Shown piece after piece: positions 5,856 to 21,844 of a stretch of 64,000 nt of DNA; the stretch's first letter is position 1; each line of letters starts with the position of its first letter. Where the stretch lies: assembly GCA_035279405.1 (NCBI GenBank), contig DATEHU010000026.1, positions 1 through 64,000 of the forward strand. Reading direction: 5' to 3'. The translations under genes and the position numbers were made by a program. Below the pieces are notes generated by a model that was given only the letters and a program-made list of their open reading frames with translations, was not told where the DNA came from and did no database searches. Origin of the DNA: Gammaproteobacteria bacterium (GTDB lineage: Bacteria > Pseudomonadota > Gammaproteobacteria > Natronospirales > REEB76).

Positions 5856-6218
5856 AAACTAATTTGATGCGCGTTGTCCGGGTGGCGGATGGTAGCACGA
5901 CCCGTTCATCGGACCGAGCGTCAGCGAACTTTCGTTTCGGAGAAAATTCAAGCTATTATGCTGCATCCTTCATCTTTGTATTCAACAGGGGCTGGGTGTG
6001 AATCAGGACTTCCGCGAAGCCGAAGGATTGGCCAGCATGACCAACGCGCGGTGTTCCTGTAGAAGCCTGGTGTCATGTTTACCGCGTGCGCGCAATTTGT
6101 ATCTGGCGACGCATTGCCGAAGAACCCAAATCGTTTGCCGCAGCGCGGCGCGCCATTCGCCAGCACCGATAAAGTTTGTGCTGCCGGGCTTCGCGTCTGA
6201 ACGCGGGTGTTGCGCACC
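5856..6218. other. divergent intergenic region between radA and the PP2C gene
   Basis: About 360 bases without a convincing gene; short frames on both strands lack family features or ribosome sites. It must contain the promoters for radA (leftward) and the PP2C-FHA pair (rightward). A TATTAT at 5954-5959 could be a rightward -10 box, but its -35 match (TTCGTT, 17 bases upstream) is weak, so I do not call a promoter. Confidence 0.4.
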
Positions 6219-7046
6219 ATGAGTTATCGGGGAAAACTCGAGTTTGCGGGCCGCACTGACAAAGGCATGGTGCGCACCAACAACGAAGATGCCATTCTCA
6301 TGGATGCGCACACCGGTCTGGTGGTGGTCGCCGACGGCATGGGCGGTTACCAGGCCGGTGAAATCGCCAGCAGCATCGCCGTCAAGAGCACCCACAAGTT
6401 CGTCGCTGACGGTCTCAAAGCTGCACGCGCACAACTTGGTGTAAGCGACAGCGGCTACCGCCACGAAAGCGTGTTGCTGCGCAGCGCATTGCAACATGCC
6501 AATGAGGTCATACAAACCACTGCCAGGAGCCAGCCGCAATGCGAAGGCATGGGCACCACGGTGGTGGCGGCGTTGTTCTACAACAACCGCTTGTCCATCG
6601 CACACGTGGGAGATTCGCGCGTGTACCGTCTGCGCGACGGTGATTTCGAGCAGATCACCCGCGACCACTCCCTGCGCCAGGAGATGGTGGCCCGCGGGTT
6701 TTACACGCCGGAGGCGGCCCGGAAGGCTCTCAAGAAGAGCCTGGTGACCCGCGCGCTGGGCGTCAGACCCACGGTCATGGTGGACCTGCAGGAGGACGCG
6801 GCGCGGGTGGGCGACATATATCTGTTTTGCAGCGACGGCCTGCACGACATGGTTTCGGATGCGGACATTCGCTTAACCATGGACATGTTTAGTGATAATC
6901 TGGAAACCGCCATGACCCAGCTGATCAAGCTGGCGAATGATAACGGCGGACGCGATAACATCTCCGCGGTGCTGGTCAAGCCGGTGATGTCATTCGAGGA
7001 CGGGCATAGGGGTTTCTTTGGGCGTGTGATCGGCTGGTTCAGTTGA
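6219..7046 (+). CDS. PP2C-family serine/threonine protein phosphatase
   Basis: 275 residues from the ATG at 6219. Metal-dependent PP2C signatures appear in order: GRTDKGMVRTNNEDA near the N-terminus, VVVADGMGGYQAGE, IAHVGDSRVYRLRDG, FCSDGLHDMV and GGRDNISAVLV near the end. The aspartates that bind the two catalytic metals are kept. No membrane segment or signal peptide is visible, so it is cytoplasmic. It is followed after about 50 bases by an FHA gene, a classic pairing for phosphothreonine signalling, yet no Hanks-type kinase lies in this window. An in-frame GTG at 6207 would add four residues. Confidence 0.93.
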   Translation: MSYRGKLEFAGRTDKGMVRTNNEDAILMDAHTGLVVVADGMGGYQAGEIASSIAVKSTHKFVADGLKAARAQLGVSDSGYRHESVLLRSALQHANEVIQTTARSQPQCEGMGTTVVAALFYNNRLSIAHVGDSRVYRLRDGDFEQITRDHSLRQEMVARGFYTPEAARKALKKSLVTRALGVRPTVMVDLQEDAARVGDIYLFCSDGLHDMVSDADIRLTMDMFSDNLETAMTQLIKLANDNGGRDNISAVLVKPVMSFEDGHRGFFGRVIGWFS

Positions 7047-7098
7047 CCGGGACGGCGCGGCAAAGAATCAACACAACGGATAATTGGAGAGGATATCC

Positions 7099-7821
7099 AT
7101 GGGCAAGCTCACACTCACGCTGGACGGACAGGAGCTGGCGCAATACGAACTCGAGAAGGAGCGCTATACCCTGGGACGGCTGCCCGACAATGATGTTCAC
7201 ATGGACAACATGGCGGTGAGCGGACACCACGCGCTGATCATCAATATCCTCAAGGATTCCTTCCTCGAGGACCTCAACAGCACCAACGGCACCTATGTCA
7301 ACGGCAAGCTCATAAAGAAGCACGCGTTGCAAGCCGGCGACGTGATCACCATCGGCCGGTTTCAGCTCAAGTATCAGGTCGCGCGTGCCAAGGCGGTTAC
7401 GGATGATTTCGAGCGCACCATGGTGATCAATCCGGGCACCGCAAGCGCGCCGGGCACGCCCAGTCTCGAGCATGTCAAACGCGCGGTGGCGCAATCCAAG
7501 GCGGAAGAACCGCGCACGAAGCCGCCGGCCAAAGCCTCACCGCCCAAGGCCAGTCTGCAAGTGCTGTCCGGCGAATTTGCCGGCAAGGAGCTGGACCTCA
7601 ACAAGCCGCTGACCACGCTCGGCCGGCCCGGTGTCCAGGTGGTAGCCATCACACGCCGCGTCGATGGCTTCTACGTGGTCAATGTACACAGCGGAACGGG
7701 GCAGGGATTTCCCACGGTCAACGGCGAACAGTTCGGCGCACGCGCGCGCAAGCTGTCCGACAACGACGTCATCGAGCTCGCAGGCGTGAAGATGGGTTTC
7801 TACACCGTGCCGGGGGCCTGA
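7099..7821 (+). CDS. FHA-domain protein
   Basis: 240 residues starting at the ATG at 7099, chosen because GGAGAGGA sits just upstream. The N-terminal FHA domain has YTLGRLPDNDV, VSGHHA and NSTNGTYVNG, the Gly-Arg, Ser-X-X-His and Asn-Gly residues that form the phosphothreonine pocket. A Pro/Ala/Lys-rich linker (about residues 125-155) leads to a degenerate FHA-like C-terminal domain (TLGRPGVQVVAITRR, FPTVNGEQF). It probably acts as a cytoplasmic adaptor reading phosphorylation that the adjacent PP2C enzyme would reverse. The gene ends right at the border of the accessory island. Confidence 0.9.
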   Translation: MGKLTLTLDGQELAQYELEKERYTLGRLPDNDVHMDNMAVSGHHALIINILKDSFLEDLNSTNGTYVNGKLIKKHALQAGDVITIGRFQLKYQVARAKAVTDDFERTMVINPGTASAPGTPSLEHVKRAVAQSKAEEPRTKPPAKASPPKASLQVLSGEFAGKELDLNKPLTTLGRPGVQVVAITRRVDGFYVVNVHSGTGQGFPTVNGEQFGARARKLSDNDVIELAGVKMGFYTVPGA

Positions 7822-7842
7822 TGGCCGGCACGCGTTTCCAGG

Positions 7843-7896
7843 CCGCCGTCCACCACGCAGAATTCCACCCTTTGGGTGATGCCGCACGATAACTTG
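7843..7896 (-). pseudogene. fossil 3' segment of an alanine racemase gene
   Basis: The minus strand reads KLSCGITQRVEFCVVDGG without a stop. The intact Alr C-terminus encoded at 15591-16712 contains ELLCGITQRVKFGVVEEH, so 11 of the first 16 aligned residues agree. The DNA match is also evident (CCACGC.GAA.TTCACCC, TGGGTGATGCCGCAC). Nothing of the rest of alr remains. It lies between the FHA gene and the TIR genes, in the same orientation as the intact alr at the other end of the island, and so marks a recombination junction. Confidence 0.75.
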
Positions 7897-8282
7897 CAAG
7901 CGGGCATGACGCCCGCACGATCGGCGGCGGCGGTAATTCGAAGAGCTTGATCTCCACGGTGCATGCAGCGTGGGTACCAATCCGCTTGACCTATACTGGC
8001 CCTGTCGGTGAGCGTAACTTCCTGTTCCCCTCGTCTTCCAAGGTGTGCATAGGCAGGGTAGAGATGGTGGGGATGGACTTGGGGTTTCGTGCCTCGCTAC
8101 CATCCCTATCCCGGCGTGCCATTCCCAGGCGAGGCGCGGCGGTACCCCGTTACATGGTGTAAGCCCCCGGCTCGAATAAGGTGAAATTGCCGGCGTACTA
8201 CCGGGCGTCGCGGCACTACGTTATGCTTGAATCCCTCCGGGGGATTCTGGGCCCGATCCGATACAGCAGGGGTTTGACCGGC
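7897..8282. other. gap upstream of the TIR gene cluster
   Basis: About 385 bases with no supported gene. It contains a GCGGGC/GCCCGC hairpin near 7899, a TATACT near 7992 and a GAATCCC/GGGATTC palindrome near 8229. No promoter with both boxes in register could be picked, although the TIR genes must be expressed from somewhere here. An in-frame upstream start at 8181 would extend the first TIR protein by 34 residues, but its paralogues start at the later ATG. Confidence 0.4.
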
Positions 8283-10070
8283 ATGGCTGACGTGTTCGTC
8301 TCCTACGCCCGCGCCGACAAGGCGCGGGTTGCCCCCTTGATCGCCGCGATTGAAGCCAAGGGCTGGTCGGTGTGGTGGGACCCGGAAATTTCTCCCGGCC
8401 AGGAGTTTGACGACCAGATCGACGCCGAGATCGACGCCGCCAAGGCGGTGCTCGTGGTCTGGACTCCGACTTCGGTGGCCTCGCGCTGGGTACGCGGCGA
8501 GGCACGCGAAGCGGCGGAGCGCGGGATTCTCGTTCCCGTGCGCTTCGAGCAGGCGCGCCTGCCAATGGATGTGCGTGCCATTCACACCACGGATCTCGAT
8601 GATTGGGACGAAGATGCGGCGAGCACCCAGGCGCATGAATTCCTGCGCGCACTGGCGGCGATGATCGCACGCTCGCAGGCTGAGCCATCCGCCAAGCCTG
8701 GCAGTGCCAAGTCGGCATCGCCGGCGGCTGCGGTCAAGCGTTTCGCCATCGGCGTGCTGCCTTTCACCAATATGAGTGGCGATTCGGAACAGGAATATTT
8801 CAGCGACGGCATCACCGAGGACATCATCACCGACCTGAGCAAGGTGTCGGCGCTGGCCGTCGCCTCCAGCAACAGCGTGTTCCTGTACAAGGGCAAGCAC
8901 GTCGACATCCAGAAGGTTGTGCGCGATCTCAAGGTCACGCACGTGCTGGAGGGCAGCGTGCGCAAGGCCGGCGGCCGGATACGCATCAACGCGCAGTTGA
9001 TTGATGGCGCAACCAACAATCATGTGTGGGCCGAACGTTACGACCGCGATGCCAGTGACATCTTCGCGATCCAGGACGAGATCTCCCAGGCGATCGTCAA
9101 GGCGCTCAGACTGCAACTGCTGCCCGAGGAGAAGAAGGCCATCGAGCGGCGTGGCACGGAGAACGCCGAGGCGCATGATCTTTACTTGATGGCGCGGCAG
9201 ATTTACATAACCAATCAGGAGGCGGACGAGCGCGCCTCGAAGGCCATCATCCGCTTGTGCGTTCAGGCCACCGAAATCGACCCGAAATACGCGCAAGCCT
9301 GGGCGCTGATGGCGATCGGTTACCGGACCCTGCGCGTATTGGGAGTGGGGTCGGACAATGGCTTGCTGGCCGCGGAGCGTGCGCTGGCGCTGGATCCCGA
9401 CTTGGCCGAGGCGCATGCCGTGAAGGCATACATTCTATTGATGCAGGACGATACCGAGGCGGCCGCCGCCGAAGTCGCGATCGCGCTGAAACTCAATCCG
9501 GATTCCTATGAAGTCAACCGTGCCGCCGGACGGCTGCACTACCAGTTGCATCGCTATGAAGACGCCATCCGCTTGTTTGAAAAAGCCGCGGGTCTAATAG
9601 ACGCGGACCTGCATTCCGCATCGATGTTGATCAGTTCGTATAACGCGCTGGGCAATACCAGTGGTACGCACCGCGCCGCAGAGCAGGCCTTCAAGCGTGC
9701 TGAAGCCATCCTGGCGCACGACCAGCACAATTCCGGCGTCGTGGCCTACAGTGCCTACGCGCTTGCAGCGCTCGGCGAAAGCGAGCGCGCCAAGACACGC
9801 ATGAATCGTGCGCTGCTGATCGATCCCGAGAACTGGAACATGCGCTACGCCTTTGCATGCAGTCTGAGCGTGTATCTGAAGGACAAGGAAGCCGCGCTCA
9901 AGATGCTTGAGTCCGTATTCGCGACGATTTCAGATGCCTTCCTGCCTTACGCCAAGGCCGATCCGGATTTTGAATCCCTGCGCGACGATCCGCGCTACCA
10001 GGCCATGGTTGCCGCCGCCGAAGCGCGGTTGTCAGCCGCGTCCAAAACATCGGCTGGCACCCATGGCTGA
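8283..10070 (+). CDS. TIR-domain protein with TolB-like and TPR regions (copy 1 of 3)
   Basis: 595 residues from the ATG at 8283, the start shared with both paralogues (MADVFVSYAR). Residues 1-125 are a TIR domain: FVSYARADKA, WWDPEISPGQ and SRWVRGEA, where Glu73 matches the catalytic glutamate of NAD-cleaving TIRs. A linker leads to a TolB-like module (about 153-285; IGVLPFTNMSGDSEQEYFSDG, HVLEGSVRKAGG). TPR-type helical repeats (about 290-580) finish it. No membrane segment is visible, so it is likely cytoplasmic. TIR domains of this kind often cleave NAD or make cyclic ADP-ribose signals; the TolB-like/TPR half may sense or oligomerise. It overlaps copy 2 by eight bases. Confidence 0.88.
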   Translation: MADVFVSYARADKARVAPLIAAIEAKGWSVWWDPEISPGQEFDDQIDAEIDAAKAVLVVWTPTSVASRWVRGEAREAAERGILVPVRFEQARLPMDVRAIHTTDLDDWDEDAASTQAHEFLRALAAMIARSQAEPSAKPGSAKSASPAAAVKRFAIGVLPFTNMSGDSEQEYFSDGITEDIITDLSKVSALAVASSNSVFLYKGKHVDIQKVVRDLKVTHVLEGSVRKAGGRIRINAQLIDGATNNHVWAERYDRDASDIFAIQDEISQAIVKALRLQLLPEEKKAIERRGTENAEAHDLYLMARQIYITNQEADERASKAIIRLCVQATEIDPKYAQAWALMAIGYRTLRVLGVGSDNGLLAAERALALDPDLAEAHAVKAYILLMQDDTEAAAAEVAIALKLNPDSYEVNRAAGRLHYQLHRYEDAIRLFEKAAGLIDADLHSASMLISSYNALGNTSGTHRAAEQAFKRAEAILAHDQHNSGVVAYSAYALAALGESERAKTRMNRALLIDPENWNMRYAFACSLSVYLKDKEAALKMLESVFATISDAFLPYAKADPDFESLRDDPRYQAMVAAAEARLSAASKTSAGTHG

Positions 10071-11856
10071 CGTCTTCGTTTCTTACGCCCGCAGCGACAA
10101 GGCACGTGTCGTGCCGCTGGTGGCCGCGCTTGAAGCCAAAGGCTGGTCAGTGTGGTGGGATCCCGAGATCAACCCGGGCCAGGAATTCGACGACCAGATC
10201 GATGCCGAGATCAACGCGGCGAAAGCGGTGCTGGTGGTGTGGACGCCGACCTCTGTAGTTTCGCGCTGGGTGCGTGGCGAGGCCCGTGAAGCCGCCGAGC
10301 GCGGGATTCTGGTGCCGGTGCGTTTCGAGCAGGCGAAGCTCCCGATGGACGTGCGCGCGATCCACACGACGGATCTCGATAACTGGCGCGAAGATCCCAC
10401 GAGCACGCCCATGCAGGAATGCCTGCGCGCGCTCACGGCCATGATCGCCCGTACCCAAGCTGCACAATCCACGAAGGCAGCAAGCGTTTCCTCTGCCGCC
10501 CCGTCCGCGAGAGATTCCGCACGTTTCTCGATCTGTGTGCTGCCGTTTACCAACATGAGCGGCGAACCGGAGCAGGAGTATTTCAGCGACGGCATCACCG
10601 AGGACATCATCACCGACTTGAGCAAGGTCTCTGCCCTGCGCATCATTTCGCGCAACAGTGCCTTCCAGTACAAGGGCAAGAACGTGGACACCCCCAAGGT
10701 TGCGCGTGAACTCAAGGTGAGCCATGTGTTGGAAGGCAGCGTACGCAAAGCCGGCGGCCGGGTGCGAATCAACGCGCAACTGGTGGAAGCGGAAGGCAAC
10801 GACCACGTCTGGGCCGAACGTTACGATCGCGACGCCAGCGACATCTTCGCGATTCAGGATGAAATCTCCCAGGCCATCGTCAAGGCGCTCAGACTGCGCC
10901 TGTTGCCGGAAGAGAAGAAAGCCATCGAGCACCGTGGCACCAGCAGCGCCGATGCCTACAACCTTTACCTCATGGCGCGCCAGACCTACGTGACCAGCCA
11001 GGAGCAGGACGAGCGTTCGGCGCAGGCCATCGTGCGCCTGTGCAAGCGCGCGACGGATATCGATCCGGGTTACGCGCAGGCCTGGGCGCTGATGGCAACC
11101 GGTTACCGGCAATGGTTTGAAGCGGAGAAGGGGAAATCCAAGGACGGCATGGCCGCGGTGGAGCGTGCGCTGGCGCTCGACCCGAATCTGGCCGAAGCCC
11201 ACGCGGTCAAGGCGCAGCTGCTGCAAATCGAGGGCGATCTCGAGGCCGCCGCCGCCGAGACCGGCATTGCACTAAAACTCGCCCCCGAATCCTACGAAGT
11301 CAACCGCTCGGCCGCGCGCCTGAGCTACCAGCGGCGCAGGTTCGACGATGCGGCCCGCTTTTATGACCGGGCCGCCGCGTTGATGGAGGCCGACCTCAAT
11401 TCGCCATTCATGCTGATCAGTTGCTTCACTGCGGTGGGTGACGCGGCAGGTACGCGTCGGGCTGCTGAATTGACACTCAAGCGTGTCGAGACTGTGCTGT
11501 CACATGATCCAAATAATTGCACAGCCGTCGCCTACAGCGTGAGCGCTCTCGCCACACTCGGTGAGGCCGCGCGTGCCAAGGCAGGCATGGAGCGAGCGTT
11601 GCTGATCGACCCCGACAACTTCAATATGCGCTACAACTTCGCGTGTACGCTGAGCGTGCGCCTCAAGGACAAGGACGCCGCACTGACGATGCTCAAGCCG
11701 TTATTCGAGACGATCTCGGACGCCTTCCTGCCCTACGCCAAGGCCGACCCGGATTTCGAGTCGCTGCACGACGATCCGCGCTATCAGGCCATGGTTGCGG
11801 CCGCCGAAGCGCGGCTCGCAACGGCGCCAAAATCGCCGGTTGGCACGCATGGCTGA
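10063..11856 (+). CDS. TIR-domain protein with TolB-like and TPR regions (copy 2 of 3)
   Basis: 597 residues. The ATG at 10063 lies inside the last codons of copy 1 (CCATGGCTGA), giving an eight-base overlap and likely translational coupling. The TIR domain differs from copy 1 at only seven of the first 80 residues and keeps Glu73 in SRWVRGEA. The TolB-like block reads ICVLPFTNMSGEPEQEYFSDG; TPR repeats follow. The TPR half diverges more than the TIR half, for example FEAEKGKSKDG replaces LRVLGVGSDNG. That pattern fits a conserved enzyme fused to a diversifying sensor, though this is inference. Confidence 0.88.
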   Translation: MADVFVSYARSDKARVVPLVAALEAKGWSVWWDPEINPGQEFDDQIDAEINAAKAVLVVWTPTSVVSRWVRGEAREAAERGILVPVRFEQAKLPMDVRAIHTTDLDNWREDPTSTPMQECLRALTAMIARTQAAQSTKAASVSSAAPSARDSARFSICVLPFTNMSGEPEQEYFSDGITEDIITDLSKVSALRIISRNSAFQYKGKNVDTPKVARELKVSHVLEGSVRKAGGRVRINAQLVEAEGNDHVWAERYDRDASDIFAIQDEISQAIVKALRLRLLPEEKKAIEHRGTSSADAYNLYLMARQTYVTSQEQDERSAQAIVRLCKRATDIDPGYAQAWALMATGYRQWFEAEKGKSKDGMAAVERALALDPNLAEAHAVKAQLLQIEGDLEAAAAETGIALKLAPESYEVNRSAARLSYQRRRFDDAARFYDRAAALMEADLNSPFMLISCFTAVGDAAGTRRAAELTLKRVETVLSHDPNNCTAVAYSVSALATLGEAARAKAGMERALLIDPDNFNMRYNFACTLSVRLKDKDAALTMLKPLFETISDAFLPYAKADPDFESLHDDPRYQAMVAAAEARLATAPKSPVGTHG

Positions 11857-13651
11857 CGTCTTCGTTTCCTACGCCCGCAGCGACAAGGCACGCGTCGTGC
11901 CGCTGGTGGCCGCGCTCGAAGCCAAGGGCTGGTCAGTATGGTGGGACCCGGAGATCAGCCCCGGGAAAGAATTCGATGACGAAATTGATGGTGAGCTGCA
12001 GGCCGCGGCCTCGGTACTGGTGGTATGGACGCCGACTTCCGTTGCCTCGCGTTGGGTGCGCGGCGAGGCCCGCGACGGGGCGGAACGTGGCATCCTTGTT
12101 CCCGTGCGCTTCGAGCAGGCGCGACTACCGATTGATGTGCGTGCCATCCATACCATTGACCTCGACGACTGGCACGGGAACGCGACCAGCCCGGCGCTGC
12201 AAGACTGCCTCAAGGCACTGGAAGTCATGATAACGAGTTCGAAGGCTGCGCACGCAAGCGCCACAGCGGTCAACAACGCCCCGGCGGCAGCCGCAGCGGC
12301 CAAAGATCCCCGACGTTCTTCGATCTGCGTACTGCCGTTTACCAACATGAGCGGTGACCCCGAACAGGAATATTTCAGCGACGGCATCACCGAGGACATC
12401 ATCACTGACTTGAACAAGGTGTCGGCGCTGCGCATCATTTCGCGCAACGCTGCGTTCCGCTACAAGGGTAAGGATGTTGATATTCCTCAAGCCGCGCGCG
12501 AGATGAACGTGAGCCACGTACTTGAGGGCAGCGTGCGCCGGGCCGGCAATCGGGTACGCATTACCGCACAGTTGGTGTATGCCGAGAGCAACGATCAGGT
12601 CTGGGCTGAGCGTTACGATCGGGATGCCAGCGACATTTTTGCACTACAGGACGAAATCTCGCACGCCATCGTCAAGGCGCTGCAACTGCGCCTTTTGCCG
12701 GAAGAAAAGAAAGCCATCGAGCGGCGTGGTACGGACAGTGCTGAAGCGCACGATTTGTACTTGATGGCGCGGCAGATGTATGTGAGTGGTCAAGAAAACG
12801 ATGAACATGCAGCACAGGCCATCATCCGCATGTGCACTCGTGCTACGGATATTGACCCACGGTACGCACAGGCGTGGGCTTTAATGGCAATCGGTTATCG
12901 GAGCTTGCGCGCATTGGGCACGGGATCCGACAGCGGCATGACTGCTGCGGAGCGTGCACTCGCCATCGATCCGGGTTTGGCCGAGGCACACGCGGTCAAG
13001 GCTTACATCCTGCTGCAAAATGGCGATCCGGATGCGGCGGCTGCCGAAGCCGAAGTCGCGTTGAAGCTGGATCCAGAGTCCTATGAGGCCAATCGCACCG
13101 CAGCGCGAGTAAATTACCAACTCCATCGATTTGAAGACGCTATCCGGCTATACGAAAAAGCCTCGGCCCTGATGGAAACAGACCTTAACTCAGCAATGAC
13201 GCTAATCAGCTGTTACAACGCACTTGGAAACATCAAAGGAATGCGCCACGCAGCTGAGACTTCGCAAAAACGTGCTGAGACCATCTTGGCTCGTGATCAG
13301 AATAACGTCGGCGCGCTGGCGTACAGCGCCTACGCACTGGCGGCATTGGATGAACACGAACGCGCCAAGGCCAGAATGAATCGCGCATTGATGATCGACC
13401 CAGACAACTTCAACATGCGTTATAACTTCGCATGCAGCCTGACTGTGCTGCTGCGGGACAAGAGCGCTGCATTAGAAATGCTCGACCCGTTGTTCAGAAC
13501 GATTACCGACGGTTTCCTGCCGTACGCCAAGGCTGATCCAGACTTTGCGTCACTACACGACGACCCGCGCTGGCAGGCGATGCTCGCAGCCGCTGAAGCC
13601 CGGCTTGGCGCGGCAAAAACCTCTCAAACACCAGTGACCAAAAAGTCCTGA
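11849..13651 (+). CDS. TIR-domain protein with TolB-like and TPR regions (copy 3 of 3)
   Basis: 600 residues from the ATG at 11849, again overlapping the previous stop by eight bases (CATGGCTGA). The TIR domain keeps Glu73 (SRWVRGEARDGAER) but differs at QAAASVLVVW and EFDDEIDGEL. The TolB-like block is ICVLPFTNMSGDPEQEYFSDG with LNKVSALRIISRNAAF, close to copy 2. The TPR segment (RTLRALGTGSDSG-like) is nearer to copy 1. The C-terminus ends in SQTPVTKKS rather than the GTHG of the other two, as expected for the last copy of a head-to-tail array. Base composition falls slightly toward the 3' end. Confidence 0.88.
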   Translation: MADVFVSYARSDKARVVPLVAALEAKGWSVWWDPEISPGKEFDDEIDGELQAAASVLVVWTPTSVASRWVRGEARDGAERGILVPVRFEQARLPIDVRAIHTIDLDDWHGNATSPALQDCLKALEVMITSSKAAHASATAVNNAPAAAAAAKDPRRSSICVLPFTNMSGDPEQEYFSDGITEDIITDLNKVSALRIISRNAAFRYKGKDVDIPQAAREMNVSHVLEGSVRRAGNRVRITAQLVYAESNDQVWAERYDRDASDIFALQDEISHAIVKALQLRLLPEEKKAIERRGTDSAEAHDLYLMARQMYVSGQENDEHAAQAIIRMCTRATDIDPRYAQAWALMAIGYRSLRALGTGSDSGMTAAERALAIDPGLAEAHAVKAYILLQNGDPDAAAAEAEVALKLDPESYEANRTAARVNYQLHRFEDAIRLYEKASALMETDLNSAMTLISCYNALGNIKGMRHAAETSQKRAETILARDQNNVGALAYSAYALAALDEHERAKARMNRALMIDPDNFNMRYNFACSLTVLLRDKSAALEMLDPLFRTITDGFLPYAKADPDFASLHDDPRWQAMLAAAEARLGAAKTSQTPVTKKS

Positions 13652-13719
13652 TCTTCGGGTTGTCCTACAGGCTAAAGGCGAGATCCAAATGCCGCACACC
13701 GTTGCGTCCGGAGATAGGC

Positions 13720-15474
13720 GTGGTTGAAACATCGGGGCTTAAAGGTAACGACTCGGGTCCTCTGCCGCTCGTCATCGGGGTGACCGGGCACCGGGATCTC
13801 CCGCCGCAAGACATCCCGCGGATCCGGGAATCAGTAGCGGCTTTTTTTGCCTGCCTGCGCAGACAGTACCCGCATACACCCCTGCGACTGCTTTCACCAT
13901 TGGCAGAGGGCGCGGATCGTCTGGTGGCCAAAGTAGCACTGGAACATGGCGCCGAACTCGTCGTTCCCTTGCCCATGCCCGAGGTGGAGTATCGCAAGGA
14001 TTTCTCCCAGACAGTTTCCGAATTCGATGCTTTGAAAGCTCGGGCGTCAATCGTATACACGCTGCCACCGCCTGTCGACGCAGCAAACGAAGCTGCGGAG
14101 ATCCATGGTGCGCACCGCGATGTGTGTTACGAGAATGTCGGCTTCTACATCGTCCGGCACTCACAGCTGATTGTGGCTCTTTGGGATGGCGTTGCGACCA
14201 AGGATAGAGGCGGTACCGCTCAAATTGTGGAATATGCATTGTCGGAAGCAGCGGACACGTCATCGGCACTGCAATTTTTGACTGATGTCAGCTCCGGAAA
14301 GGCGGTGTGGCATCTCCGGGTACCACGATTGAACAGCCACTTGAAAAAAGACGCTGCAACGTTCCCGCAATACTACTCGGCCGTCTGGCGTTTCAATGCT
14401 AAACACGATCGAGAGCTGCCATTTACTGTAGCCGGCGACGGCTGGCCGAAATCGCACTTCGCCCATTTACGGTCGGTGGAAGTATTCAATGTGGAAGCAT
14501 TATCCCTCTCACCCGAGCGTATTCACGCAAGTCTGGATGTGCTGCTGCCACCAAATGTGGACGGCAAAACCATTGACCCGTCAGAACGTATTGTCCGTTC
14601 ATTTGTTGCGGCCGACCTGATCTCGGGGAAACATCAAAATACAACCTACAAGTTATGGAAGTGGATTTTCATGCTGGCTGGAGTGATGATCCTGGCGTTT
14701 GAAAGTTACGCGCACCTTTGGCCTCATGGCCTGTTGTTGTTGCTCTATCCGGCGGCATTCATCGCCATGACCATTGCTTATGCGATCTTGAACAGACGCC
14801 GGTTGAATGACCGCTTTATTGACGCACGCATCCTCGCCGAGGCGCTGCGGGTGGTGATTTACTGGCGCCTGGCTGGGATCCGGGAGAGTATCACTGATCA
14901 ATATCTGGGGCGGCATATCGCGGCCATAGGTTGGATACCGAGTGCAATATCGGGTCTGCTTGCCTTGCCAATGCCCGACGCCGAATTTGCCCAGCAACAC
15001 GGGCTACGCGTTACCGATCAATTCTGGGTTGATCGCCAGCTTAAATACTATGAACGTCAGTCTGTCCGTCAGGGCAGGCGTGTAAATCTATACCGCCGGT
15101 TTGCCGGATCGCTGTACGCACTGACCGTGGTGTTTTCGGTGTGCGTGGCGATATACGGGGTCATCGTGACGAAGCCCTCGCCGCTGCGTGACATACTGAT
15201 TTTGCTCATGGCCTCCGGCCCTGCGATTGCGGTGCTATGGATCGCTTATGCCGAGAAACAGGGCTGGGAGAGGCACATCAAGGAATATACGCGCAACGCG
15301 GTACTGTTTGCACGTGCACATGAGCTGATTGTCAATTTCGGAAAATCCAAATCATCGGCGAGCTTCCCGCATATACAAAAGGTACTGCTGGAACTTGGGA
15401 AGGAAGCAATTTGCGAAAATGCCGAATGGGCGGTATTGCACCGCGTGAAACCGCCCGCTATTCCGCTGGGATGA
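13720..15474 (+). CDS. SLOG-like Rossmann protein with four C-terminal membrane segments (SLATT-like)
   Basis: 584 residues from the GTG at 13720, which has GGAGA five bases upstream; a TTG at 13660 is also possible. The N-terminal half has nucleotide-binding signatures of the SLOG/LOG superfamily: VIGVTGHRDL (about 18-27), SPLAEGADRLV, LIVALWDG and GGTAQIVEYAL. The C-terminal half has hydrophobic segments at about 315-330, 335-357, 463-485 and 491-511, paired around charged helices (RRRLNDRFIDARILAEALR; WERHIKEYTRNAVLFARAHEL), resembling SLATT effectors. SLOG domains bind nucleotide signals and SLATT domains are predicted pore formers. Position directly after three TIR genes suggests a ligand-gated membrane effector. 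I do not recognise a named family. Confidence 0.7.
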   Translation: MVETSGLKGNDSGPLPLVIGVTGHRDLPPQDIPRIRESVAAFFACLRRQYPHTPLRLLSPLAEGADRLVAKVALEHGAELVVPLPMPEVEYRKDFSQTVSEFDALKARASIVYTLPPPVDAANEAAEIHGAHRDVCYENVGFYIVRHSQLIVALWDGVATKDRGGTAQIVEYALSEAADTSSALQFLTDVSSGKAVWHLRVPRLNSHLKKDAATFPQYYSAVWRFNAKHDRELPFTVAGDGWPKSHFAHLRSVEVFNVEALSLSPERIHASLDVLLPPNVDGKTIDPSERIVRSFVAADLISGKHQNTTYKLWKWIFMLAGVMILAFESYAHLWPHGLLLLLYPAAFIAMTIAYAILNRRRLNDRFIDARILAEALRVVIYWRLAGIRESITDQYLGRHIAAIGWIPSAISGLLALPMPDAEFAQQHGLRVTDQFWVDRQLKYYERQSVRQGRRVNLYRRFAGSLYALTVVFSVCVAIYGVIVTKPSPLRDILILLMASGPAIAVLWIAYAEKQGWERHIKEYTRNAVLFARAHELIVNFGKSKSSASFPHIQKVLLELGKEAICENAEWAVLHRVKPPAIPLG

Positions 15475-15590
15475 ACGTGGCGCTGACGGAGCCGTGACCG
15501 GATTTATTCCGGGCCGTCATCCACAAGATGCTTGAGCCCGTGACGGTCCAATGGGCGTACCGGAACCGCGCGTCACCTTTGTGCGCGCGC

Positions 15591-16712
15591 TTATTTGCTC
15601 ACAATGGCAGGAGCCGCCGTGTCCACGGCGTGTTCTTCCACCACGCCGAACTTCACCCGCTGGGTGATGCCGCACAACAACTCATAAGGGATGGTGCCGG
15701 CGGCGCGCGCGATTTCCTCGACCGGCAATTCCGCTCCCCATAACACCACGCTGTCACCCACACGCGCCTGTGGCTGGGTTTGCAAATCCACCGCAATCAT
15801 GTCCATGGACACCCGCCCGATCAGCGGCACGCGCACGCCGTTCACCAGCACCGGAGTGCCGTCGGGTGCGTGGCGTGGATAACCGTCGCCGTAACCGATG
15901 GCGGCGATGCCGATGCGCGTGTCCTGTTCGGCGCGCCAGTTGCCGCCGTAGCCCACGGTGTCACCGCGTGCCACGGCTTTGACCGCGATCAATTCAGTGC
16001 GCAGGGTCATCACCGGCCTGAGGTCGTGGTCGCGACCGCAGTGACCGGCGAACGGCGCCACGCCGTACAAGAGGATCCCCGGCCGCACCCAGTCGGCGTG
16101 GCTCTCGGGCCAGGCGAGCAGTGCGGCGGAATTGGCGATGCTGCGCTCGGCACGCAAACCCGCGGTGCTGGATGCGAAAGTCTCCAGTTGCGCGCGCGTG
16201 TGCGCATTGCCGGGCTCGTCGGCGCGCGCGAGATGCGTCATCAAACGCACCGGCCCACGGACCGCGGCGGCCGCGTGCAACCTTTCCCAGGCGGCACGCG
16301 TCGCGCCCGGTGCAAAGCCGAGCCGGTGCATGCCGGTATCGAGCTTGAGCCACACGCTCACGGCCTTGTCGAGACGCGAGGCTTCAAGCAACGCGAGCTG
16401 ACCGGCGTCGTGCACCACCAGCTCGCAGCCGTGGCGCGCCACTTCTTCCAGTTCCGCCGCGGAAAACACCCCTTCAAGCAACACGATGGGGTGCGCCAGG
16501 CCCGCATGACGGATGACCAAGGCTTCCTCAAGCGAGGCCACGCCGAAGGCATCGGCTTCCGAGAGCGCGCGTGCCACCACCGCCAGGCCGTGACCGTAGG
16601 CGTTAGCCTTGACCATGGCCATGATGCGCGCACGCGGCGAGAGCGCACGCACCCGCCGCAGATTGTGACGCAGTGCGGCCAGGCTGATGAGCGCGCCGGT
16701 CGCGCGGCTCAC
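15591..16712 (-). CDS. alr: alanine racemase
   Basis: 373 residues from a GTG that overlaps the dnaB stop (GTGA). PLP-binding Lys35 is in IMAMVKANAYGHG. The barrel continues with LKLDTGMHRLGF and MTHLARADEPGN, and the C-terminal domain has IGYGDGYPRHAPDG, RVSMDMIAVDL and CGITQRVKFGVVEEHAVD. The enzyme makes D-alanine for peptidoglycan. It is the last gene of rpsF-rpsR-rplI-dnaB-alr. A degenerate copy of its final codons lies at 7843-7896, across the TIR island. Confidence 0.96.
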   Translation of the reverse strand: MSRATGALISLAALRHNLRRVRALSPRARIMAMVKANAYGHGLAVVARALSEADAFGVASLEEALVIRHAGLAHPIVLLEGVFSAAELEEVARHGCELVVHDAGQLALLEASRLDKAVSVWLKLDTGMHRLGFAPGATRAAWERLHAAAAVRGPVRLMTHLARADEPGNAHTRAQLETFASSTAGLRAERSIANSAALLAWPESHADWVRPGILLYGVAPFAGHCGRDHDLRPVMTLRTELIAVKAVARGDTVGYGGNWRAEQDTRIGIAAIGYGDGYPRHAPDGTPVLVNGVRVPLIGRVSMDMIAVDLQTQPQARVGDSVVLWGAELPVEEIARAAGTIPYELLCGITQRVKFGVVEEHAVDTAAPAIVSK

Positions 16713-19513: not shown

Positions 19514-19744
19514 TTCAGGGGCTTACGCGGGCAATCGCGGTCATGCCGGCCCTGAGCCCTTCGACAAACTCAAGCCAGGTTAGTCGCAGGGGGCTGCTCC
19601 TACGTTGACGGCGCCTTCCGTATGAGCGGGCCACGCCCGCGACAAGCTTCGTCTTGCCGTGATCCGCGCATACCGCATTTGCGGGGCTTTCGCGCCGGGC
19701 TGCCGCCCGTTATAGTCTGGCGCCAATCACGGGGTGGGGGTTCC
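19514..19744. other. intergenic region between the rpsF promoter and the TolB-like/TPR gene
   Basis: About 230 bases. It contains a half-copy of a dispersed repeat (CTGAGCCCTTCGACAAACTCA, near 19551). An open frame from 19622 runs into the next gene but looks unlike protein before the ATG at 19745. No further gene is supported. Confidence 0.4.
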
Positions 19745-21844
19745 ATGGCCGAAGAATCTGCCAACTTCCTGGCGCGACTCAAGCAGCACCACATGTACGG
19801 TGTGGTAGTCGCTTACGCGGTGGTGGTCGGCTTCCTGATTCAACTGGTCAGTCGCGCGTTTCCATACTTTGGCTGGACCGGTGCCGTGCCAACGGTCATC
19901 GTCGTGCTGCTCCTGGGGTTTCCGGTGGTCGTGGTTCTGGCCTGGCTGCTGATCGAGCCCAAGGGCGCGGCCAAACCGGACACCTGGCAGCGGCGGCACT
20001 GGAAGCTGAGCGCGCTGACCACGGCTGTGGTGATCGTGCTGGTGGTGATCTCCGGTTTTTACGCCCTGCAATTCTCGCGCCAGCATGCCTCGATGCTTGA
20101 GGGCTCCGCGCCATCCCAATCCCAGGCGCTTGCGGCTGTGCCGGCAAAATCCATTGCGGTCCTGCCCTTCGAAAATCTCAGCGCTGAAAAGGAAAATGAA
20201 TATTTCGTGGCCGGCATGCAGGATCTGATTCTCACCAAGCTGGCGGACGTCGGCGATCTCAAGGTAATTTCGCGCACCTCGACGATGCAGTACGGCAGCC
20301 ATCCTGGAAATCTCACGCAGATTGGTGAGCAACTGGGCGTCGCCACTATCCTCGAAGGCAGCGTACAAAAAGCTGGGGATCAGGTACTGATCAACGTGCA
20401 GTTGATTGACGCGCAGACCGACAACCACATCTGGGCGCAGAGCTACCAGCGCACGCTCGACAACGTGTTCGGCGTCGAGGGCGACGTGGCCGAGCAGATC
20501 GCCACGGCTTTGCAGGCCAAACTTTCGCCCGCACAATCCGCAGCGCTGGCCGCGGTGCCCACCCAGAACCGTGCGGCCTACGACCTGTTCCTGCGCGCCG
20601 AGTATCAGGCCAACAAGGGCCTTGTCAATTACGATACGGCCAGCTGGAAGGCTGCAATTCCGCTCTACCGGCAGGCGGTCGAACAGGATCCCAACTTCGC
20701 ACTTGCCTGGGCGCGGCTTTCCTACAATGAAAGCGAGCTTGCCTGGTTCGGTGGTGGTGGCGAAGACGTGCAACGACTCAACCAGCAAGCGCGCGCCGAT
20801 GCCGAGCGTGCATTGCAATTGCAACCCGATCTCGCGGCAGTGCATCTCGCCATTGGTTACAACGAATACTGGGGCCGCGGTGATTATGCTGCTGCGTTGC
20901 AAGCATTCGGGGTCGCGCTCAAGCTCAAGCCCAACGATGCCGATGCCCTGGCCGCGCAGGGCTTTGTGCAGCGCCGTCAAGGCCAATTCGATGCCGCAAT
21001 CGCCTTGTTCCAGCGAGCTTTGACGCTCGATCCGCGCAATTCTGCGTTGGCCTTCGAACTGGGCCTGACCAACATGGAGGTGAGCCGATTTGCGGATGCC
21101 GAGAATGCTTTCCAACGCGCACTGGCGCTTGATCCTGATAATCTCAATGCCAAGGTCAATTATTCCCTGACTGTCCTGCTTAGCACCGGCGACGTTCCGC
21201 GTGCGCTGGCCCTGGCGCAAGGTGATGTTCCGCAGTTGCAACTTCAACGCGTAAGCTTATTGCCTTATCAACACAAATACCGCGAAGCGTTGGCGCTGCT
21301 CGACAGCATACCGGATACACCCGACAATTTTTCGATTGGCAGTGGCGGCTTCAAGCCGATGCAACAAGCCAACTTGTACTGGTTGATGGGGGACATGGCG
21401 CATGCACGACCGCTGTATGCAAAGGCATTAGCGTTGCTGCGCGCAAAGCTGAAAATGGCGCAGGGGATCAATTCGGCATTTGTGTGGCTGCAACTTGCCA
21501 ACGCCCAGATTGGGCTGGGCCAGGCAGAGGCAGGGCTGGACTCCATTGCCAAGTCGCTGTCCGTTGTCAGCAGCGTTCACGATCAGGTTTACGGGCCGAT
21601 AACGATGTTGTCGGACGCCCAACTGTATGCCCAGGCGCGCCGTCCGGATCTCGCGGTGCCATTGCTTGCCAAGGCACTCACCATACCTGGTATCGGCTCT
21701 GGCTACTCGCCGCTGATGCTGTGGCTTGATCCACTCTGGGATCCAATCCGTCACGACCCGGGTTTTCAGGCACTGCTCACGAAATATGCGAAATATAAAC
21801 CCGCGGTCGCCTACGACGCCGAGCCCGCCGCCTCTGGTTTGTAG
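19745..21844 (+). CDS. membrane-anchored TolB-like/TPR protein
   Basis: 699 residues from the ATG at 19745, after a G-rich ribosome site (GGGGTGGGGG). Three N-terminal hydrophobic segments (about 18-36, 48-70 and 88-110) anchor it in the inner membrane. A TolB-like module follows (about 135-270; SIAVLPFENLSAEKENEYF, ATILEGSVQKAGDQV, DNHIWAQSYQR), then TPR repeats with AIALFQRALTLDPRNSALAF and AENAFQRALALDPDNLNA. It resembles CadC/adenylate-cyclase-type accessory proteins but lacks the DNA-binding or cyclase domain. The TolB-like block is clearly related to that in the three TIR proteins. Function unknown. Confidence 0.8.
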   Translation: MAEESANFLARLKQHHMYGVVVAYAVVVGFLIQLVSRAFPYFGWTGAVPTVIVVLLLGFPVVVVLAWLLIEPKGAAKPDTWQRRHWKLSALTTAVVIVLVVISGFYALQFSRQHASMLEGSAPSQSQALAAVPAKSIAVLPFENLSAEKENEYFVAGMQDLILTKLADVGDLKVISRTSTMQYGSHPGNLTQIGEQLGVATILEGSVQKAGDQVLINVQLIDAQTDNHIWAQSYQRTLDNVFGVEGDVAEQIATALQAKLSPAQSAALAAVPTQNRAAYDLFLRAEYQANKGLVNYDTASWKAAIPLYRQAVEQDPNFALAWARLSYNESELAWFGGGGEDVQRLNQQARADAERALQLQPDLAAVHLAIGYNEYWGRGDYAAALQAFGVALKLKPNDADALAAQGFVQRRQGQFDAAIALFQRALTLDPRNSALAFELGLTNMEVSRFADAENAFQRALALDPDNLNAKVNYSLTVLLSTGDVPRALALAQGDVPQLQLQRVSLLPYQHKYREALALLDSIPDTPDNFSIGSGGFKPMQQANLYWLMGDMAHARPLYAKALALLRAKLKMAQGINSAFVWLQLANAQIGLGQAEAGLDSIAKSLSVVSSVHDQVYGPITMLSDAQLYAQARRPDLAVPLLAKALTIPGIGSGYSPLMLWLDPLWDPIRHDPGFQALLTKYAKYKPAVAYDAEPAASGL

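What the first reader, a model, noticed from the sequence alone, without database searches (positions are those of the whole stretch)
8283..15474. Three overlapping TIR/TolB-like/TPR genes with a SLOG-membrane gene: Thoeris-like system of unfamiliar architecture
Seen: three tandem proteins with near-identical TIR domains (Glu73 in SRWVRGE conserved), each with a TolB-like block and TPRs, then a protein with SLOG-type nucleotide-binding motifs and four membrane segments. Known: in Thoeris, TIR proteins (ThsB, often several per locus) make a cyclic ADP-ribose-type signal sensed by a SLOG domain in ThsA, and some effectors are membrane proteins. Inferred: a TIR-signalled, SLOG-sensed membrane effector in which the TPR halves detect different triggers. 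TolB-like/TPR fusions are not part of the ThsB proteins I know.
Basis: partly seen in the sequence, partly recalled or inferred. Interest (0 to 1): 0.82.

Follow-up and report, generated by a model that had tools for sequence, protein, structure and literature searches.

The report
TIR sensor array with membrane effector
An uncultured bacterium carries a movable four-gene cassette in which three related sensor-enzymes probably make a small signal molecule that opens a membrane protein and stops an infected cell, a Thoeris-like immune circuit with an unusual sensor array and effector.

Summary
Three tandem genes (8283-10070, 10063-11856, 11849-13651) encode TIR + TolB-N-like + TPR proteins with the catalytic-type Glu73. 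A fourth (13720-15474) has an N-terminal SLOG domain (model closest to YpsA, Z 14.7) followed by two SLATT-type membrane hairpins. The cassette interrupts a locus that is closed in all 9 family relatives that could be checked; relatives carry it at two other sites. Complete arrays in the genus hold 2, 3 or 7 TIR genes per SLOG-SLATT gene, and TIRs, sensor bodies, SLOG and SLATT parts recombine. Relatives of the SLOG-SLATT gene lie beside TIR genes in 45 of 80 loci (34 of 51 with both flanks), and a standalone version of this SLOG sits in a TIR-caspase-SLOG-TIR gene row. I read it as a Thoeris-like circuit: sensor bodies switch on TIR enzymes, an ADPR-type nucleotide binds SLOG, and the SLATT pair breaches the membrane. 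It is not a member of Thoeris type I, II or IV (no SIR2/STALD, macro or caspase). TIR/SLOG/SLATT links were predicted before, and an unread 2025 preprint on TIR systems may cover this type. I call it a new variant of a known kind. Signal, gating and phage defence are inferred.

The parts
7822..7887 (-). Remnant of the old alr 3' end at the left border of the insertion
   Evidence: The uninterrupted locus of G004 aligns to window 6531-7887 and again from 15635 on; its positions 1332-1372 align with both borders
7888..15634 (.). Inserted cassette carrying the four genes; I saw no integrase gene in it
   Evidence: FHA and alr matches are 17-90 nt apart in all 9 other family genomes where both were found; borders
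8283..10070 (+). T1: TIR + TolB-N-like + TPR protein, 595 aa
8283..8612 (+). TIR domain of T1 (residues 1-110), WxxxE glutamate at residue 73
   Evidence: Pfam TIR_2 1e-23; alignment to solved TIR 7uxr
8739..9152 (+). TolB N-terminal-like domain of T1 (residues 153-290)
   Evidence: 2hqs_B Z 15.4 on residues 154-300; CadC periplasmic domain 3ly7 E 2e-7
9165..10037 (+). TPR region and TPR end domain of T1 (residues 295-585)
   Evidence: Pfam TPR families, NCBIfam TPR_END_plus over its cut-off
10063..11856 (+). T2: TIR + TolB-N-like + TPR protein, 597 aa, start overlaps the T1 end by 8 nt
11849..13651 (+). T3: TIR + TolB-N-like + TPR protein, 600 aa, start overlaps the T2 end by 8 nt
13720..15474 (+). 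SLOG protein with two SLATT-type hairpins, 584 aa, the proposed nucleotide-gated membrane effector
13762..14469 (+). SLOG domain (about residues 15-250)
   Evidence: YpsA 2nx2 Z 14.7 on residues 15-222; DprA and LOG rows reach about 250; 99.1% hhalign match to a standalone YpsA-type SLOG in a TIR-caspase gene row
14575..14796 (+). First SLATT-type membrane hairpin (residues 286-359)
   Evidence: Helices 286-332 and 337-359 in the model; DUF4231/SLATT_3 profile matches
14980..15261 (+). Second SLATT-type membrane hairpin (residues 421-514)
   Evidence: Helices 421-482 and 488-514 in the model; SLATT_1 profile match at 437-509, below cut-off
7084..7821 (+). Left flanking core gene, FHA-domain protein (not part of the system)
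   Evidence: Pfam FHA; conserved neighbour of alr elsewhere
15591..16712 (-). Right flanking core gene, alanine racemase alr (not part of the system; named from its sequence by recall)
   Evidence: its 3' end is the insertion point

Best explanation
It is a movable, Thoeris-like signalling cassette. Each TIR protein is a soluble enzyme whose activity is held by its TolB-N/TPR body. When a body meets its trigger (an invader protein or a change it causes), the TIR domain turns NAD+ into an ADP-ribose-type nucleotide. The SLOG domain of the fourth protein binds that nucleotide and its two SLATT-type hairpins assemble or open in the membrane, arresting or killing the infected cell. Several TIR sensors feed one effector, so the repertoire can change by adding, losing or recombining sensor genes. 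Shown: domains, conserved catalytic-type glutamate, gene order, linkage, variable arrays, private insertion and recombination. Inferred: the signal, the binding, the membrane effect and the anti-phage role.
For: TIR with the WxxxE glutamate in 20 of 20 complete array genes. SLOG fold of a nucleotide-binding kind and paired hairpins. Relatives of the effector have a TIR gene within 2.5 kb in 45 of 80 loci, 34 of 51 with both flanks >=2.5 kb; TIR domains number 26 and 26 in the 0-2 and 2-4 kb bins against 4 and 1 at 4-6 and 6-8 kb (9.3, 10.9, 1.9 and 0.5 per 100 kb). Partners also include DUF4062 proteins (two loci) and RyR-domain proteins (two over cut-off, one under it); published work makes DUF4062 a TIR-like NADase (PMC13174449, abstract start and passages) and RyR proteins binders or cleavers of cADPR isomers (PMC13232231, passages). 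The same SLOG stands alone in a plasmid row TIR-caspase-SLOG-TIR, and a plasmid SLOG-DUF4231 gene precedes a TIR gene. Complete arrays of 2 (G005, G008), 3 (here) or 7 (G003) TIR genes directly upstream of one effector gene. Private insertion and three sites in the genus. G000 and G004 share 94% and 91% in the flanking FHA and alr proteins but 76% in the effector. T1-T2 DNA is 93% identical to G008 while the effector gene is 74%. Between G004 and G008 the effector gene jumps from about 0.75-0.80 to 0.97-0.98 DNA identity near residue 300. SLATT proteins are needed for phage defence in DRT10 (PMC12632851, passages) and were predicted to be ADPr-regulated membrane effectors (PMC9503650, passages).
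Against: 35 of 80 relatives show no TIR gene within 2.5 kb by my profile, some for want of flanks. In a phylum sample only 2 of 11 more distant relatives had one, 4 of 11 counting DUF4062. The flanks are core genes, not a defence island. Related but lower-scoring TIR-TolB proteins occur without an effector gene in the stretch read (L056, L057), and in L076 the TIR-TolB-TPR gene lies downstream on the other strand. The TIR part of the T1 model is low-confidence, so the active site was judged by alignment only. The SLOG is not of the ThsA family by sequence, so the pocket could bind another nucleotide. No function was measured.
Confidence: 0.6

Rival explanations
1. The TIR proteins are themselves the killing effectors: triggered TIR assemblies drain NAD+, and the SLOG-SLATT protein only tunes or limits this, for instance by sensing ADP-ribose.
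For: Some bacterial TIRs deplete NAD+ directly (PMC12847820, passages); Glu73 is conserved in all 20 copies.
Against: One SLOG-SLATT gene directly follows each of the six arrays or single genes whose downstream end is on the contig (G000, G003, G005, G008, G009, G030). SLATT proteins are needed for defence elsewhere (PMC12632851, passages), and the SLOG recurs with a caspase between two TIR genes, which fits a sensor of a TIR product.
Confidence: 0.17
2. It is a stress or envelope-signalling module rather than immunity: the TolB-N/TPR bodies, as in CadC-like proteins, sense a cell state and the TIR nucleotide opens an ion path.
For: The same genome carries winged-helix and apparently membrane-anchored proteins with this body, and one rhizobial relative of the body is annotated as a cyclase. 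Flanks are core genes.
Against: Three insertion sites, unequal arrays and domain-level recombination are the marks of conflict systems. Presence is patchy (7 of 11 genus genomes), but of the four without the effector only G001 is over 90% complete, and G010 holds a TIR fragment at a contig end.
Confidence: 0.15
3. Not a rival mechanism but a rival on novelty: it is an already described Thoeris type, listed in the preprint of Yirmiya and colleagues (Dec 2025) that I could not read.
For: That preprint is titled as a systematic discovery of TIR-based signalling systems and is cited for a type VI Thoeris using 2'cADPR (PMC13232231, passages and references). NCBIfam already names a type III protein ThcB4.
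Against: In NCBIfam of June 2026 the window's effector and the four relatives scanned match only SLATT domain models, under cut-off; in PADLOC 2023 the window's effector and six relatives match nothing. T1-T3 score 37-39 bits against a ThcB4 cut-off of 220.
Confidence: 0.3

Closest known systems
Thoeris type I (ThsB TIR + ThsA SIR2-SLOG, 3'cADPR)
   Same: One or more TIR genes with a single SLOG-bearing effector
   Different: No SIR2; SLOG not of the STALD family by sequence; output is a pair of SLATT-type hairpins; TIRs carry TolB-N/TPR bodies
Thoeris type II (TIR + TM-macro ThsA, His-ADPR)
   Same: TIR signal to a membrane effector
   Different: Sensor is SLOG; no macro domain match
Thoeris type IV, and the Rhizobium binae TIR-caspase-SLOG-TIR gene row
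   Same: The plasmid row has a standalone SLOG related to this one (hhalign 99.1%, 33% identity over 141 columns)
   Different: A caspase-like protease stands there; here SLATT-type hairpins are fused to the SLOG
SLOG/SLATT/TIR conflict systems predicted by Burroughs and colleagues (2015; paper not held, seen only as cited in PMC9503650 and PMC7159879)
   Same: TIR, SLOG and SLATT as enzyme or sensor domains and pore-like effector
   Different: Here two SLATT-type units, TolB-N/TPR sensor bodies, and arrays of TIR genes per effector; whether the 2015 paper shows any of this I could not check
CadC-type and other TolB-N/TPR proteins
   Same: Same body fold: CadC periplasmic domain 3ly7, TolB; best plasmid row 44% identical over the body
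   Different: Those seen carry a winged helix, hydrophobic N-terminal stretches or (one annotated) a cyclase in place of TIR

Membership tests
Thoeris (general) | TIR gene(s) in a row with one effector bearing a nucleotide-binding domain | tested here: met
   adjacency of array and effector in relatives
Thoeris (general) | TIR product activates the effector and protects against phage | not testable with these tools
   Needs biochemistry and plaque assays
Thoeris type I | ThsA with SIR2 plus STALD-type SLOG | tested here: not met
   No SIR2 or STALD match in P0004; no STALD match in G000; hhalign of the family against one STALD protein, probability 0.3%
Thoeris type II | TM-macro effector | tested here: not met
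   No macro domain match in the four proteins
Thoeris type IV | Caspase-like protease effector | tested here: not met
   No caspase match in the four proteins
Thoeris types III, V and VI | Effector architectures of these types | not tested
   Definitions not available here; the preprint was not held. NCBIfam ThcB4 (type III) scores far under its cut-off
SLOG superfamily | YpsA/DprA/LOG Rossmann-like fold with conserved glycine-rich motifs | tested here: met
   GVTGHRD and GGTA in the consensus of family A2
SLATT | Paired transmembrane helices | tested here: met
   Two helical hairpins in the predicted model; prediction only
SLATT | Match to a SLATT/DUF4231 profile | tested here: inconclusive
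   Window protein under the cut-offs; 49, 23 and 15 of 72 family members match DUF4231, SLATT_3 and SLATT_1 at E<=0.01, best E 1.9e-9
TIR NADase | TIR domain with WxxxE glutamate | tested here: met
   TIR_2 over cut-off; Glu73 in 20 of 20; activity itself not testable

The most novel reading that the evidence does not exclude
A separate TIR signalling type in which a repertoire of TIR sensors, built by swapping one conserved enzyme domain onto diversifying TolB-N/TPR receptor bodies, all report to a single SLOG-gated double-SLATT membrane channel. Sensors, enzyme, ligand pocket and pore would each be exchangeable parts, so a bacterium could widen what it detects without changing the killing end.
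Probability: 0.35. Interest if true: 0.8.

Novelty: new variant of a known kind. Interest (0 to 1): 0.62.

Why it matters
How bacterial TIR systems recognise invaders is little known. A natural array of 2 to 7 paralogous TIR sensors on one effector, with bodies that persist as at least six families across species and TIR domains that recombine among them, makes that question testable by swapping bodies. It also offers a candidate SLOG-gated SLATT channel, where a TIR nucleotide would directly open a membrane, and it shows a CadC-type receptor body recruited to a TIR enzyme.

Tried and rejected
Membership in Thoeris type I: rejected, no SIR2 or STALD. ThsA did not appear among the 50 rows shown, which excludes nothing. 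TRPM channels (also SLOG-bearing, by recall) appeared at Z about 7 with mostly large rmsd; I use this as an analogy only.

The idea that paralogous TIR domains are alike because of recent gene conversion was not supported in general: fourfold sites are diverged in TIR (mean 0.45) about as in TolB (0.41), against 0.58 in TPR, so constraint explains most of the TIR likeness. Body and TIR trees conflict nevertheless: the TIR data reject body clades D, E, F and A+G003_6 (p 0.0001-0.005) but not A (p 0.19) or B (p 0.066), and the pair T3/G003_7 is found in both trees. I named D, E and F with both trees before me, so those p values are optimistic.

Searching for prior description: Thoeris and TIR terms, SLATT/SLOG/TIR, ThcB with Thoeris (none), SLATT/Hailong/DUF4231, TIR/tetratricopeptide/Thoeris/SLOG/gene neighborhood, Thoeris type names, the Yirmiya title, Thoeris/SLOG/channel/transmembrane, TIR domain with CadC/TolB/TPR/cyclase (none). 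No title or abstract start shown described this architecture, but the library lacks the two most relevant papers, and I read only passages of the others.

The phylum sample weakened the linkage claim (2 of 11 by TIR profile); I kept both numbers. Whole-genome searches with alignments scored at most three candidates per genome. My checkpoint note says 8 of 11 genus genomes; the correct count is 7 of 11. Viral contigs: 3 relatives found; a TIR gene is in the fetched stretch of 2.
Full report
Where it lies. The window is part of a 2.46 Mb genome in 59 contigs. The records nearest to its effector are metagenome assemblies, most labelled Proteobacteria, Gammaproteobacteria or Natronospirales. The four genes run in one direction between an FHA gene and a gene I name alr by recall. 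The genome has four TIR_2 matches, three of them here.

The three sensors. T1-T3 (595, 597 and 600 aa) begin with a TIR domain, pass a variable linker, then a TolB-N-like domain and TPRs. The T1 model has poor confidence in the TIR part, but its body matches TolB itself (2hqs_B Z 15.4 on residues 154-300; 4pwz Z 15.5) and the CadC periplasmic domain (3ly7, E 2e-7). Of the eight other matches to the body in this genome I fetched five. None can carry a TIR_2 domain; one begins with a winged-helix regulator domain (Trans_reg_C) and four show hydrophobic stretches near the N-terminus (read by eye). On plasmids the body matches 282 records; the 12 rows shown are 42-46% identical and leave the TIR part unmatched. 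One of these rows is annotated as an adenylate/guanylate cyclase domain protein. So TIR seems to have been attached to a common receptor-like body. I saw no membrane segment between TIR and body by eye.

The effector. P0004 has no match in the PDB by sequence at E<=1. With 72 family sequences its model is good (pLDDT 84, pTM 0.85). Residues 15-222 align with YpsA (Z 14.7, rmsd 3.0, 162 aligned), then DprA, ShosA, Moco carrier and LOG-AMP structures follow. The C-terminal half forms two hairpins of long helices (286-332/337-359 and 421-482/488-514). Of 72 members, 49 match DUF4231, 23 SLATT_3 and 15 SLATT_1 at E<=0.01, and one matches a YpsA-related SLOG family.

Linkage. The genome scan found 209 relatives and kept the best 80. 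Using a TIR profile iterated from the window's TIRs over these loci, 45 of 80 have a TIR gene within 2.5 kb on either strand; with at least 2.5 kb on both sides it is 34 of 51. Density falls from 9.3 and 10.9 TIR domains per 100 kb within 4 kb to 1.9 and 0.5 beyond; the genus arrays contribute to the near bins. Partners differ: TIR-TolB-TPR (genus, G030, L076), TIR proteins of about 700 aa in many loci, with TPRs in the two scanned (L097, L180), shorter TIR proteins, an nSTAND-TPR protein (L071), WD40 (L158, L182) and DUF5050 (L156) proteins. In a sample of 398 genomes of the phylum 13 had the family at E<=1e-20. Of the 11 outside G000 and G030, 2 had a TIR gene by profile. Pfam on ten neighbour proteins from 8 of the 11 loci found DUF4062 in two more (L187, L188), a sub-threshold TIR (L190) and RyR in two (L184, L186). 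RyR proteins bind or cut cADPR isomers (PMC13232231, passages), so ADPR chemistry recurs among the partners. A Rhizobium binae plasmid has TIR, caspase, standalone SLOG and TIR genes in a row; that SLOG matches our family at 99.1% probability. A Caballeronia plasmid has a DUF4231 relative followed by a TIR gene. In a sample of 369 class genomes, matches to the TIR-TolB-TPR model at E<=1e-70 that include the TIR part occur in G000, G008 and G030 only, and these lie beside the effector; two further matches lack the TIR part. Lower-scoring TIR-TolB proteins without a SLOG-SLATT gene in the stretch read also exist in G003 and G030.

Mobility and recombination. The effector is in 7 of 11 genus genomes; of the four without it three are 75-84% complete, G001 94%. 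A TIR-TolB-TPR gene or its fragment lies directly upstream in 6 of these 7; in G007 the contig ends inside the effector gene. Complete arrays hold 2 (G005, G008), 3 (here) or 7 (G003) genes; G030, of another family, has one. G004 has five complete and one cut gene on a contig of its own that I infer to be the same array. The FHA-alr junction is closed (matched ends 17-90 nt apart) in all 9 other family genomes where both genes were found; G002 and G009 had neither match. In the window an old alr end (7822-7887) remains on the left and another stands on the right; 41 positions of G004 align with both. Elsewhere the cassette lies near a class II tRNA synthetase gene, aspS by recall (G005, G007, G008), or an M56 peptidase gene (G003, G004), and a transposase-domain gene lies next to it in G008. 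G000 and G004 share 94% and 91% in FHA and alr proteins but 76% in the effector. T1-T2 are 93% identical in DNA to G008 over 8270-11838 while the effector gene is 74% and FHA and alr proteins are 74% and 73%. Inside T1 the fit to G008 is uneven: fourfold sites differ by 0.45 in TIR but 0.09 in TPR. In G004 against G008 the effector gene switches from about 0.75-0.80 to 0.97-0.98 DNA identity near residue 300, close to the SLOG/SLATT border. The stretch between SLOG and SLATT (181-285) is the least conserved part in 27 of 28 pairs (49-77% protein identity; the pair G007/L060 is the exception). Bodies form at least six starred families; T1-like bodies are first and T2-like bodies second in the arrays of G003, G004 and G008. 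TIR sequences conflict with several body families. Over 183 gene pairs mean protein identity is 0.90 in TIR, 0.82 in TolB, 0.68 in TPR and 0.47 in the linker, with fourfold-site differences of 0.45, 0.41, 0.58 and 0.56. The enzyme is held constant while linker and TPRs vary.

Reading. The simplest account is a TIR nucleotide circuit: variable bodies sense, a constant TIR domain signals, SLOG receives, SLATT acts on the membrane. It works like Thoeris; it fails the effector criteria of types I, II and IV. Prior computational work placed TIR, SLOG and SLATT in one conflict network (PMC9503650 and PMC7159879, passages), and SLATT is required for defence in DRT10 (PMC12632851, passages). What I did not see in the passages read is the TolB-N/TPR body, the array of sensors and the double SLATT. 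PADLOC has no model for the effector family (0 of 7 effector proteins), NCBIfam only SLATT domain models under cut-off (5 effector proteins). Since a preprint on TIR systems could not be read, novelty is provisional.

Noticed in passing
L088:7371-7973, L097:7335-7973, L099:7452-8006: In three gammaproteobacterial loci a small protein of about 200 aa with a signal-peptide-like start (by eye), no Pfam match in the two scanned (L097, L099), sits between a TIR gene of about 700 aa and the SLOG-SLATT gene; it may be a third component.
   Followed up: partly
L184:3330-8763 and L186:2496-6758: SLOG-SLATT relatives stand beside RyR-domain proteins (in L186 with TrkA_N), in L184 also a patatin-like phospholipase, suggesting other ADPR-linked outputs.
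   Followed up: partly
L160:3617-5986 (Rhizobium binae plasmid p4): Four genes in a row: TIR, caspase, standalone YpsA-type SLOG, TIR; a split version in which SLOG may be a separate receptor.
   Followed up: partly
window 19622-21844: Another protein with a TolB-N/TPR-like part (34% identity to T3 over part of the body), without a TIR_2 match.
   Followed up: no
window 6207-7821: A PP2C phosphatase gene followed by an FHA gene; the FHA-alr neighbourhood is conserved in the family.
   Followed up: no
L058:11037-12236 (G000:C42): A fourth TIR protein of this genome, 400-aa frame with a C-terminal TIR domain and unidentified N-terminal part.
   Followed up: partly
L060: A near relative of the cassette on a 4.8 kb contig binned as Acidobacteriaceae, 95-98% DNA-identical to G007 over the effector up to about residue 410 and 88% after it; a binning error, a recent transfer or a recombinant.
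   Followed up: no
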